The notes under the pieces: model-generated | What the model was told of the DNA's origin: nothing | Databases searched by the model: none | The model's input: the letters and a program-made list of their open reading frames with translations, nothing else | Program-made: the position numbers and the translations under genes | Shown: positions 48,406 through 57,400 of the stretch, one piece after another | How positions within the stretch are numbered: position 1 is the first letter of the stretch | Layout of the letters: each line of letters opens with the position of its first letter | Assembly: GCF_021134715.1 (NCBI RefSeq) | Contig: NC_060023.1 | Location: forward strand, 2,170,001-2,234,000 | DNA length: 64,000 nt | Direction of reading: 5' to 3' | DNA from: Daphnia pulex | Taxonomy: Eukaryota > Arthropoda > Branchiopoda > Diplostraca > Daphniidae

Positions 48406-51400
48406 TTATTTGCAAGATGTGCAGTACCATTTAACATGTTTCGGCTTCGCTGGGTAATCTTCTACACACATTCGATGAAACCATCCTTCACACTTGTCAC
48501 ACTCGATAAGATCCCAATCTTTCCCACCACTCTTGTACTCAATCCTTCGACAATAGCAGTAAACTGGTATATTTCTTGACGGAATGCGGCTAGTGCTTCT
48601 TCGCTTTTCACCAGGGAAGATTGTCATTTCCTGATTAACGAAACAGTTGAAAAGATGTTTCCTTATTTCATTGCCATTAAATTGGTAATGAATGGGATCA
48701 ATGTCGTTGGCAATTGCTGTTGCAAACGCGATAGCAAGAACCCCACAATCTCCAATTTCTTTATCCAACATTCGCTGGCATGGTGCTATCTGGTAAGTCA
48801 TGGTACGGTCTGTGGTCTTCACCAACGATGACATACAAGCCAAAACCGGTTGTCTTCCGTCTTCAAAAAAATTCATGCTGTAAAAGATATAGAGTAATTT
48901 TTAAATGATTATCTATGTATATAATAGTTATATAATGTAATGTATATATAATATATATAATACATATAAACAACATTCTAAATAATATTGAAATTTTAAA
49001 TTTGTGGAAAACAATGGTAACAATTCCACATTTGCTCTTATTAATTTAATAACATTTCCCTTAATCTAACAGTATTGATGGTTTCATACCTATCGTAAAC
49101 GCGAATTGCGCTACCACCACCAAAAAAACCTTTTGCAACAACCAGCCAGTGACCCGGGTTGTGCAGTATTTGGATCCATTTTTCTTTATCGGGAACCGGG
49201 TAATTAGCCAATTGCGACAACCTCACTGACATGAAGCCACCAATATTAGGAAACTGCCGACGTAGGATTGTTGAAGCGGCATCCATGTGGTAATCCATGA
49301 ACCAAGACCTCGGAATCAAGATTTCATTCATTTCCTTTTCAGATAGTTTTTCATCAGAAAACACCGTCCTTTGTATCTAATGTACAAAACATTATATATT
49401 ATACCATTTATATTATTACGTATAACCTATTGTCTCTATATGTGAAAATGTAACTTGAATTAAAAAATTAGGCCTACCTCACGCCTTGCGTGTGGATCTA
49501 CATTGATTTCTTTCGATGGAATAGTTACATCGATCTCGTCGATTCCTTTTACCGCACCTTCCTGGACAGATGAAACACAGTCATCTTTTGGAATGGAGAT
49601 GTCATTTTTGTTTTGGGCAGACATCTTTTCGTCGCCACTTTCTTCGGAAGCCGGAGATATAGGACCGGTCGAAATAGGCCCCGACGAAATAGGCCCGGCA
49701 AATAGGACCGGTCGAAATAGGACCCTACGAAATAGGCCCACTTTTAAAATATTTTTAAAGCGGTCCTATTTCTCCGTCAAAGTGGGCCTATTTCTCCCAA
49801 TTATTTCTAAGTTCCATAAGGTACTCTGAAATATTTTCAAAAAATATTCGACCTTCTCCACATGAGCGAGAAGGCGGAATATTCAACGAAGGATCCGCCA
49901 CCGCTTATATTCATTGCCGTAGCTCAAACCACGATGAGTGAATTCACACATTGCCGTTTCGTTTTTCACATGTTAGGTAGCTGATTTCCGTCTTTATTTT
50001 TTTATGAACGTATTCCCCTTGATCTTAACTGTAAAATTCATTTTTTACAAACGTCGTTTTCACTTATTAACTATCGCTAATTTAAAAAAATGAACAAATT
50101 TTCGTGTTTTCTTCGCCATTTATTTGTTCCGTAGCTCGATCCCCCCTTCAGCGGCTCAGCCTTGAACGCGTCTCTCCCCTTCAGCGGCTCAGCCTTGAAC
50201 GCGTCTATCCCCCCTCTACCTATGCCAGTACTCAGGTGAAGTAGGAAATGAACATGTTTGATGAAATAAATCTTACGGATTGATTTCAAACATATCCATA
50301 ACAATTTCATGTTTTTTTTAAAGCAACAAACGCATATCACTTTTAAGTTTCTTGTTTTATGGGGCTGACGCGAGGTGCTGCTCAAGCCGGCCAGAAGGGT
50401 GGTCGAGCGGGGGAGGCTGCACGCACTCATGGGAGAGGGGTGAGTGAAGGGGGGTTTACCTGGGCCATACCATACAGTCCCATCTTTTCCCTTCTACGTA
50501 CATGTCAACGGATGGTCTAGTGGTTAGCAACTCGGGGTAATAATCTCAAGTGCCGGTGTTCGAATCTCGGCCATGTCGATTAAGATTTTTATTTACAAAA
50601 TATTTTAGAAAAATTAATAGCTCAACAGCATAAAGCGGTGTGGAACTATCCTGGCGAAATTGATCGTTTTTTGTTTTTTTAATTGATGATATATACATTA
50701 ATTGATTTAATATACAGCACGAAAAGGAAATTTCTATTATAGTTGAATACCAAATGTGGTTTTGAAGATTTCCATCTATCGGTGATAGTGGCGTCACTAG
50801 CGTGGTTCAATAGCGTCATAAAGATGGCGTCATCTGCTCATCGTCAACTTCAGCGTTTAATTTACAAATAAGAAATAGAAATCTTATAAAAAAATTAAAA
50901 TAGCTTCAACATGTGTACATTTTATTTTTAATCATTTTAAAATTTGAATTGCAATTTTCGTTACATTTGATCTGTAAGAATTCGATTCTGAATCATTTTC
51001 ATTTCAAATCGATTCACACACATAGCAGACGCTAACACATCAAGCGTCATCAATAGCGTGGTCTGTGGTGCAATGCTATCGCTGGAGTAAGGCGTTTACC
51101 TTCAATTCGGGTATGTTAGAGAACTCTTATCATGTTATTTTCAATCTTTAGTTAATACTATTGTTATTATCAACTTGTGTGGATAGGTAGCGTCATGATT
51201 GGCCTACCCTGATGGCGTCATGATCGCTGCTGATTGCCTTTCAAATAGGTTTTCAGCATTCTGCTTACACCTTTGGCATAGAGTCACATATTTCACAATC
51301 CAACATCAATTGGTACCAACAGCAGCCCTTCTCTCCATCATCCAGAAGGGTCTGAGATCAGTGTTGGAGATGTGTGTGACAATTTTAATATGATGAAATT

Positions 51401-54400: not shown

Positions 54401-57400
54401 CGCCTTACTCCAGCGATAGCATTGCACCACAGACCACGCTATTGATGACGCTTGATGTGTTAGCGTCTGCTATGTGTGTGAATCGATTTGAAATGAAAAT
54501 GATTCAGAATCGAATTCTTACAGATCAAATGTAACGAAAATTGCAATTCAAATTTTAAAATGATTAAAAATAAAATGTACACATGTTGAAGCTATTTTAA
54601 TTTTTTTATAAGATTTCTATTTCTTATTTGTAAATTAAACGCTGAAGTTGACGATGAGCAGATGACGCCATCTTTATGACGCTATTGAACCACGCTAGTG
54701 ACGCCACTATCACCGATAGATGGAAATCTTCAAAACCACATTTGGTATTCAACTATAATAGAAATTTCCTTTTCGTGCTGTATATTAAATCAATTAATGT
54801 ATATATCATCAATTAAAAAAACAAAAAACGATCAATTTCGCCAGGATAGTTCCACACCGCTTTATGCTGTTGAGCTATTAATTTTTCTAAAATATTTTGT
54901 AAATAAAAATCTTAATCGACATGGCCGAGATTCGAACACCGGCACTTGAGATTATTACCCCGAGTTGATAACCACTAGACCATCCGTTGACATGTACGTG
55001 GAAGGGAAAAGATGGGACTGTATGGTATGGCCCAGGTAAACCCCCCTTCACTCACCCCTCTCCCATGAGTGCGTGCAGCCTCCCCCGCTCGACCACCCTT
55101 CTGGCCGGCTTGAGCAGCACCTCGCGTCAGCCCCATAAAACAAGAAACTTAAAAGTGATATGCGTTTGTTGCTTTAAAAAAAACATGAAATTGTTATGGA
55201 TATGTTTGAAATCAATCCGTAAGATTTATTTCATCAAACATGTTCATTTCCTACTTCACCTGAGTACTGGCATAGGTAGAGGGGGGATAGACGCGTTCAA
55301 GGCTGAGCCGCTGAAGGGGAGAGACGCGTTCAAGGCTGAGCCGCTGAAGGGGGGATCGAGCTACGGAACAAATAAATGGCGAAGAAAACACGAAAATTTG
55401 TTCATTTTTTTAAATTAGCGATAGTTAATAAGTGAAAACGACGTTTGTAAAAAATGAATTTTACAGTTAAGATCAAGGGGAATACGTTCATAAAAAAATA
55501 AAGACGGAAATCAGCTACCTAACATGTGAAAAACGAAACGGCAATGTGTGAATTCACTCATCGTGGTTTGAGCTACGGCAATGAATATAAGCGGTGGCGG
55601 ATCCTTCGTTGAATATTCCGCCTTCTCGCTCATGTGGAGAAGGTCGAATATTTTTTGAAAATATTTCAGAGTACCTTATGGAACTTAGAAATAATTGGGA
55701 GAAATAGGCCCACTTTGACGGAGAAATAGGACCGCTTTAAAAATATTTTAAAAGTGGGCCTATTTCGTAGGGTCCTATTTCGACCGGTCCTATTTGCCGG
55801 GCCTATTTCGTCGGGGCCTATTTCGACCGGTCCTATATCTCCGCCAATCCTTTCTTCCTAAATAGCATATTAGTTTTGTTGTTCATAAGTGAAACACTAT
55901 TGTTGCTTCTTACTGATTCCAATGAGATGTTTCCTTCCTGATGTTTTCTGCATTGGGCGTCATAATTCTCCATGTATTTTTTAATGTCTTCGTCTATGTT
56001 TTTATCAAAGGAAATATCGCGATATATGCTACAAATGCTTTCTTCGGAAGATGAATCATGTGTGCTTTCTTCGGAAGATGAATCATGTGTACACAGTTCC
56101 TCTTCTCCACTGACATAACAAAGATTCTCCTCTTCCGTAACTGTGGGTCTTTCTTCCTCTACTGTTTTCTCTATTTCTGGTTGTTGAAGTTCTGAATCAT
56201 CTTTGATGTTGTAATGATAATTGTCTTCGTAGTCTTGGAAGTCATCAGAAAACTGGTTATCATGTTCCAGAATTTGTCGTTGTTTGAAGTTCTTCAATTC
56301 AGGTTCTTTTTGCAACATTTTTTTGGTATAATTGCCGCTTGAATTTGATAAACAATCCGTAGCGTCCCCTTCAGTAATGTAATCGCCGTTTATAATTGTA
56401 CCATTCAAGTCCTCTTCCGTTCTGTTGTCTTGTTTTTCTTTTTTTTCCGCAGGTGAATCTTTGTTTTTTTTTGTCTTCATCTTCCCCATCCTCACTGGAA
56501 TTTTCGATCTGGATAATTTGCAATAATATGAGTTAATTAATTTAGCCTACTTTAAGTATTTTATATATGTTATATAGGAAAGTTTCTCACCACAGAAAAA
56601 GAATGTTTCCTCTTCTTCAAAATTGTTGGTAATGGATCATAAGTACTCGGCTTGTAAGAACAGTCTGAATCACGATCACACGTTTTGTCTTCCACGCTTT
56701 GGTAACGTTTTTCTCGATTTTCTTGGAGATGCAAAGATTCTATTTTTGCAATTTCGGCCTCTTCTTCATAAGGGTTGCATGAGAATAAATCATCATTTTG
56801 TTTTTCCTACAAAAAAATCATAAAACTTAATACTATTTGTTCATCTTTTCTGTAATCATAAATTACTATTGAATTTTCATAAAAACATATAGATTATGAG
56901 TATTTTGTTATAGCTGTAAAAATTATAACTGATTTGTATATATGATATATAATGTAAACATTTCATACATTCGTGTTCATTTTCTTGAATTTCCTATATC
57001 CACTGGCCTTCTTCTTCTGCGCTTTGGCGGATCTTGGTTCTCCTTTAGTTCCAGAACGAGAATTTTTCATGTTTCTTCTCATTCTTGTTCCATTTGGTTT
57101 TTTATTCGTCTTTCTCGGAATGTATCCAATTGATAGCATTGCAGCCATAATATGTGAACAAGTCACTGTTGATGAGCACGTGCAATATTGTCCTGGTTCT
57201 CCATTTTCACCATGAAACAAAGTTACCGCATGTTTCTGCCCACCATGGGAGGTTACAGCAAAGCATTTCTGTTGAGGGACCAGTGAAATTCTGTTTTCCA
57301 ATATTATCAGCTTTGCTCGACTAAGAACAGTGGGACTTGGTATATATTCCTTTGAGGTTCCCTTTGGAGTACTAATAACCTATCAAATTATATATAGTAT

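What the first reader, a model, noticed from the sequence alone, without database searches (positions are those of the whole stretch)
49653..55842. Long-arm transposon that captured a WD40 corepressor gene (TBL1/ebi) with its introns
Seen: a 6190-bp element with matching termini, GCC target duplication, arms of about 2.5 kb and exact in-frame restoration of the host exon on excision. The inner arms and centre hold TBL1 exons in correct order with splice sites. Known: gene capture by non-autonomous DNA elements (Pack-MULEs, Pack-TIR) is well described in plants but rarely in animals. Inference: DNA-level capture followed by arm duplication, giving a palindrome that could make hairpin RNA against the parental TBL1 gene.
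Basis: partly seen in the sequence, partly recalled or inferred. Interest (0 to 1): 0.88.

Follow-up and report, generated by a model that had tools for sequence, protein, structure and literature searches.

The report
Palindromic jumping gene carrying TBL1 pieces
A 6.2-kilobase animal jumping gene picked up a stretch of the host gene TBL1, introns included, and holds it in both arms of a near-perfect DNA palindrome; gene pick-up by such elements is already known in animals, but a captured gene inside the arms is unusual.

Summary
Window 49653-55842 is a DNA transposon with inverted arms (49653-52192, 53220-55842), a GCC target duplication, and a host frame that is open when the flanks are joined. 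Both arms carry a decayed TBL1/ebi fragment with introns, so it was captured as DNA. The outer 1,894 bp of the arms differ at 2 sites; inside 51546/53949 they differ at 35 of 630 sites plus 10 indels. One lesion shared beyond that boundary suggests: capture, decay, inverted duplication, divergence, then homogenisation of the outer arms. Independent sign of mobility: two metagenome contigs (L001, L002) start with the same terminus at 94-95% over 65 and 96 bp; their flanks look like two sides of one insertion at GCC/GGC. It is a foldback-type Pack-TIR with a 3-bp duplication, which speaks against the Drosophila FB/Mutator type. Animal Pack-TIRs are published (370 in one study), so: new variant, not new kind. 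The hairpin-RNA idea is untested; no genome, parental TBL1, transposase or RNA data were available. Side finding: L001/L002 look like decaying T4-like phage DNA inside an animal genome.

The parts
49650..49652 (.). left copy of target duplication GCC
55843..55845 (.). right copy of target duplication GCC
49653..49799 (+). left terminal module: terminus GGAGATATAGG plus 7 copies of AAATAGGMCC (5 direct, 2 inverted); likely transposase-binding array (inferred)
   Evidence: 14 copies in the element, 0 in the rest of the window; shuffled element mean 0.015
55696..55842 (-). right terminal module, mirror of the left
49653..51546 (+). left outer arm, homogenised (2 of 1,894 sites differ from the right arm)
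53949..55842 (-). right outer arm, homogenised
51249..52663 (+). captured TBL1 fragment, left copy: 7 exon pieces, 6 introns, broken frame
53220..54242 (-). captured TBL1 fragment, right copy, shorter at its 3' side
   Evidence: start at 54242 by mirror of the left arm
51547..52192 (+). left inner arm, diverged (35 of 630 sites, 10 indels; 97-bp stretch absent near 51775)
53220..53948 (-). right inner arm, diverged
52664..53219 (.). centre without match between arms; two of its open frames scanned, no family
55833..56495 (-). acidic ORF of another apparent transposon, interrupted by the element
   Evidence: open frame restored on joining flanks
48406..48876 (-). PHD-finger ORF downstream of the interrupted ORF, probably the same host transposon (inferred)
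   Evidence: PF00628 E 2e-6

Best explanation
A non-autonomous, foldback-type DNA transposon of an unassigned group with a 3-bp duplication. Inferred history: a template switch copied a genomic stretch of TBL1 with introns into the element; the fragment decayed; a second switch or inverted gap repair duplicated the arm, giving a palindrome; the arms diverged by about 5.5%; then the outer 1.9 kb of one arm was overwritten by the other (arm-to-arm conversion or template-switched gap repair). A transposase supplied in trans, binding the AAATAGGMCC arrays, put it into a GCC site in another transposon. Shown: anatomy, target duplication, captured exons and introns, sharp identity boundary inside a TBL1 exon, the same terminus in two other contigs. 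Supported but not proven: capture and decay before arm duplication (one lesion); that the two contigs are two sides of one insertion. Inferred: template switching, conversion, trans transposase. Most likely the TBL1 pieces have no function.
For: Target duplication and frame restoration; introns with splice sites; PDB hits to TBL1 proteins; at a conserved Trp codon outside the homogenised zone the right arm has lost one base and the left arm has the same length there, with one substitution (51765/53735); boundary 2/1894 against 35/630; exon and intron divergence equal (23/418 and 12/212, approximate exon limits) and differences at codon positions 7/93, 4/92, 4/92 in the 277 sites with a usable frame, so no sign of protein constraint; same terminus at 94-95% in L001 and L002, flanks starting GGC and GCC and joining into one open frame; the gene is continuous in relative L006.
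Against: No genome, so no parental TBL1, no full second copy, no transposase. A 3-bp duplication alone is weak (1 in 64 by chance). The order rests on one shared lesion. Outer-arm identity could in part come from assembly polishing. L006 is 21 nt shorter next to the L001/L002 insertion point, so it is not an exact empty site, and the exact joined sequence was not found in the viral contigs.
Confidence: 0.75

Rival explanations
1. The palindrome is a working hairpin-RNA locus: read-through transcription makes dsRNA whose siRNAs act on TBL1.
For: About 300 bp of TBL1-derived sequence lies in the perfect part of the stem, and 368 bp of the inner arms lies in perfect runs of 21 or more. Hairpin RNA loci give siRNAs that silence genes in Drosophila (PMC10317233, PMC10292708: listing and start of abstract seen).
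Against: No transcript, small RNA or promoter evidence; similarity to the parental gene unknown; the inner TBL1 arms diverge equally in exons and introns, so no selection to keep the match is seen.
Confidence: 0.08
2. Two sister copies, each with the TBL1 piece, fused head to head (recombination or nested insertion), then lost the middle.
For: The two TBL1 copies end at different points (52663 and 53220) and the centre shows no match between arms.
Against: Still needs homogenisation of the outer arms; no internal terminus remnant: the 14 terminal motifs lie only at the two ends.
Confidence: 0.2
3. Assembly artefact (false inverted join).
For: Arms almost identical over 1.9 kb; no reads available.
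Against: Flanks differ and carry a target duplication; the inner arms have 35 substitutions and 10 indels; the terminus occurs elsewhere.
Confidence: 0.04
4. Captured protein-coding gene still under selection.
For: Left exons from 51911 on, read across introns, keep 153 of 186 TBL1XR1 residues.
Against: Stop TAA at 51517 in both arms and frameshifts in both arms; equal exon and intron divergence.
Confidence: 0.02

Closest known systems
Animal Pack-TIRs, in particular Ssk-FB4 of Drosophila (PMC8277862; abstract, sections 9 and 12, passages)
   Same: Non-autonomous TIR element that captured an intron-containing host gene piece; repetitive long TIR (about 700 bp); template switching proposed.
   Different: In the text read the gene is flanked by the TIRs and duplications are 9-10 bp; here the gene lies inside both arms and the duplication is 3 bp.
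Foldback elements Tetris and Galileo (PMC4079207, passages)
   Same: Long inverted arms with internal repeats, no transposase in the Tetris copies; the paper cites TIR elongation and extra binding sites inside Galileo TIRs.
   Different: 8-10 bp duplications in Tetris; no captured host gene in the passages read.
Plant Pack-MULEs with multiple long TIRs (PMC3310237, passages)
   Same: Captured gene fragments plus rearranged long TIRs.
   Different: Mutator-like elements of plants; tandem TIRs, not gene-bearing palindromic arms, in the passages read.
Drosophila hpRNA loci (PMC10317233, PMC10292708; listing and start of abstract only)
   Same: Hairpin (inverted-repeat) locus with gene sequence.
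   Different: No RNA evidence here; carried by a transposon.

Membership tests
Pack-TIR (TIR element with captured host sequence) | TIRs with target duplication at both ends | tested here: met
Pack-TIR (TIR element with captured host sequence) | captured non-TE host sequence, not a retrocopy | tested here: met
   TBL1 hits and six introns
Pack-TIR (TIR element with captured host sequence) | parental copy outside TEs in the same genome | not testable with these tools
   no genome held
Foldback-type element (structure) | very long inverted arms with internal short repeats and no transposase | tested here: met
   1,894-bp outer arms, 7 terminal motifs per arm, 33-bp tandem repeat; no transposase family in the 4 ORFs of the element that were scanned
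Drosophila FB / Mutator superfamily | target duplication of about 8-10 bp (FB4 9-10 in PMC8277862, Tetris 8-10 in PMC4079207; Mutator recalled) | tested here: not met
   3 bp GCC
PIF/Harbinger | 3-bp TWA target (recalled) | tested here: not met
   GCC in the window; GCC/GGC beside L002/L001
CACTA/EnSpm | CACTA/CACTG ends (recalled) | tested here: not met
   ends are GGAGATATAGG
Zator or Academ (3-bp duplication, recalled) | related transposase | not testable with these tools
   no autonomous copy found; listing gave no terminus description
hpRNA / endo-siRNA locus | transcribed hairpin processed to 21-23 nt RNA | not testable with these tools
   no RNA data

The most novel reading that the evidence does not exclude
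A mobile palindrome that keeps host-gene sequence inside self-homogenising arms: each transposition seeds a ready-made hairpin against TBL1/ebi, a chromatin corepressor, and arm-to-arm conversion keeps the hairpin perfect, so a transposon acts as a source of new RNAi loci aimed at a host regulator.
Probability: 0.08. Interest if true: 0.85.

Novelty: new variant of a known kind. Interest (0 to 1): 0.5.

Why it matters
One copy shows capture, decay, inverted duplication and arm homogenisation, with a sharp boundary that orders them. If other copies exist, how foldback arms grow and stay identical becomes directly testable, as does whether gene-bearing palindromes feed RNA interference in animals.

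Tried and rejected
Retrocopy: rejected, introns present. Drosophila FB/Mutator membership: rejected on the 3-bp duplication. A second shared lesion that I first suspected at the third intron donor did not hold: the right arm shows an Asn codon before a GT donor there, so only one informative shared lesion is claimed; shared lesions inside the homogenised zone (exon 2 deletions, stop at 51517) say nothing about order. At the Trp site the left arm also has a private 4-bp insertion close by, and therefore scored the left arm differently from the right; the claim that both arms lost one base uses the gap-free arm alignment at that place. tRNA-like stretch near 50508-50578: no tRNA, no Rfam match up to E 5 in 50380-50720. 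Open frame 53013-53186 (-): no Pfam hit, one chance PDB hit of 13 residues at E 1.5. TBL1 in viral contigs: 5 stretches matched a peptide pattern, none a relative. Terminus in phage records: none; in plasmids: one hit of 36 query bases at E 0.6, taken as chance. First exact terminus pattern in viral contigs: 0; the looser pattern gave L001 and L002 and in the genome contigs L003; the next one added L004. L003 and L004 hold one motif pair each in unrelated context, taken as chance. The 16-base end pattern matched 92 stretches; a BLAST of the terminal 148 bp against all 176 sequences then held found the terminus only in L001 and L002 and their sub-loci L084, L085, plus a 24-bp stretch in L003. 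L177/L178: one 22-bp match to the 33-bp repeat inside a phage coding gene, taken as chance. Paper searches without use.

Full report
Observation. It starts GGAGATATAGG and ends CCTATATCTCC, with GCC on both sides; removing it and one GCC gives an open frame through the host ORF. The host ORF is not a cellular exon but part of what looks like another transposon: a PHD-finger ORF lies downstream and SWIM and Mutator-transposase matches below cut-off lie upstream. The label MULE-like is therefore tentative.

Terminal module. Each end carries seven copies of AAATAGGMCC, five direct and two inverted, within 147 bp; the element holds 14, the rest of the window none, and shuffled element sequence 0.015 on average. 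Bases 49653-49805 fold as single-stranded DNA better than all 200 shuffles. A cluster of transposase-binding sites is the natural reading, but it is inferred.

Captured gene. A peptide pieced from the two arms matches TBL1XR1 (5naf, 3e-144) and, for the LisH part, TBL1X (2xtc, 2e-19). The left copy, 51249-52663, holds seven exon pieces and six introns of 63-74 bp. Introns 4-6 come from the protein-to-DNA alignment; introns 1-3 were set by eye on splice sites, where the alignment disagreed. Left exons from 51911 on, read across introns, keep 153 of 186 TBL1XR1 residues. The matches begin at residue 19 of the LisH chain and end at residue 307 of 402 of the WD40 chain, so both ends of the protein are missing. 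Both copies are broken, with a stop at 51517 and its mirror and frameshifts.

Two layers of arm identity. Over the outer 1,894 bp the arms differ at 2 sites; inside 51546/53949 they differ at 35 of 630 sites with 10 indels, Fisher p 1.5e-19. Exon and intron parts of the inner arms differ equally (23/418, 12/212; the exon limits used were approximate, off by up to about a dozen bases). In the 277 sites with a usable frame, codon positions differ at 7/93, 4/92, 4/92. So the inner arms drifted without visible constraint, and the outer arms were made alike later. The boundary falls inside a TBL1 exon, so homogenisation came after capture. Outside the homogenised zone one lesion is shared: at a conserved Trp codon the right arm has lost one base, and the left arm has the same length there with one substitution (51765/53735). 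The fragment was therefore probably already decaying when the arm was duplicated. This is a single lesion; two independent losses are not excluded.

The terminus elsewhere. A scan of IMG/VR for the terminal motif gave L001 and L002, two contigs of one sample number (3300042935); both begin inside the terminus and run out of its outer end, at 94% over 65 bp and 95% over 96 columns. Their flanks start GGC and GCC. Joined with one copy, they give an open frame (...NKYHHLDRLAFWINVPMQYECL...), and a relative, L006, has one 154-residue frame whose residues 1-88 match L002 and 88-153 match L001. L006 is 21 nt shorter at this point, so it is not an exact empty site, and the exact joined sequence was not found in the collection. 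Taken together this is probably one more insertion with the same 3-bp duplication.

Setting of that insertion. L001 and L002 carry T4-like replication genes (PHROGs; related phages at 60-90% DNA identity). Ten + strand frames of L006 of 120 residues or more match L001/L002. Four have internal breaks: the polymerase (two in-frame stops), a 376-residue frame (one stop), the DnaB-like helicase (one stop near residue 405 of 480), and a 172-residue frame matched in two frames; the stops there are TAA, TAG, TGA and TAG. A fifth, the clamp loader, has one stop. One is split by the element. Two are open (UvsX-like recombinase and a 184-residue frame). Two hold stops that may precede the true start. 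In L176, further along the contig of L080, cytidyltransferase-like and endolysin-like frames are open. So decay is partial. L005 and L006 have the polymerase as one open frame of 844 and 868 codons. Against L005, the L001 polymerase differs at codon positions 47, 28, 207 without indels; L005 against L006 gives 52, 32, 296. Most of the divergence thus arose under constraint, and the breaks are recent. L080 and L082, from two other sample numbers, are 99.8% and 99.9% identical to L001 over 5.6 kb and keep the later polymerase stop. L080 leaves L001 at base 5011 into sequence that encodes a DUF5641 protein (E 4e-24), a domain I recall as typical of animal BEL/Pao retrotransposons; L082 shares the first 22 bases of that junction. 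L080 also has 7 gap bases against L001 and a frame change in the recombinase that L001 and L082 lack, so some of its breaks may be assembly errors. The simplest reading is phage DNA inside an animal genome, later hit by a retrotransposon and by this family. Chimeric or error-rich assembly is not excluded.

Mechanism. Template switching is the published model for animal Pack-TIRs (PMC8277862, sections 9 and 12 read), and TIR elongation is the cited model for foldbacks (PMC4079207, passages). Both fit. The homogenised outer arms fit arm-to-arm conversion or gap repair with a switched template; I cannot tell these apart.

Place among known things. By structure it is a foldback-type Pack-TIR. It fails the 8-10-bp duplication of the Drosophila FB/Mutator group. 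The superfamily is open. The captured gene inside both arms is the unusual feature; I did not see it in the parts of papers that I read, which is not a claim that it is unpublished.

Function. About 300 bp of TBL1-derived sequence lies in the perfect stem and 368 bp of inner arm in perfect runs of 21 or more, so a transcript through the element would fold into long dsRNA. Nothing here shows that one exists.

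Noticed in passing
L001:1-10644, L002:1-11109, L080:1-8073, L082:1-6392, L176: T4-like phage DNA that looks integrated in an animal genome: several replication genes with in-frame stops or frameshifts, others still open, a DUF5641 (BEL/Pao-type, recalled) insertion junction in L080 whose last 22 bases recur in L082, and the terminus of the window's transposon family. Relatives L005 and L006 with an open polymerase exist in other samples.
   Followed up: partly
window 50791-51220 and mirror 54275-54704: Six GCGTCA sites in 430 bp of each arm, possibly a second set of binding sites.
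   Followed up: no
window 50508-50578: tRNA-like A and B box by eye; one of the two mismatches between the outer arms lies in it (50527), the other just upstream (50495). No tRNA or Rfam match.
   Followed up: partly
window 59227-59975 and 59970-60718: Tandem duplication of 749 bp at 99.7% identity.
   Followed up: no
window 4387-6987 and 8338-10949: Two 2.6-kb copies at 72% DNA identity; an ORF of the second has an NRF domain, the first was not scanned.
   Followed up: no
window 17940-19241 and 20257-21520: Direct repeat of 1.3 kb at 78%.
   Followed up: no
window 63240-63892: 194-bp tandem repeat, 3.4 copies, 96%.
   Followed up: no
window 23436-23882: Self-complementary stretch of 447 bp, 74%.
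   Followed up: no
window 53013-53186 (-): Open 57-codon frame in the centre of the palindrome, no family; perhaps another captured piece.
   Followed up: partly
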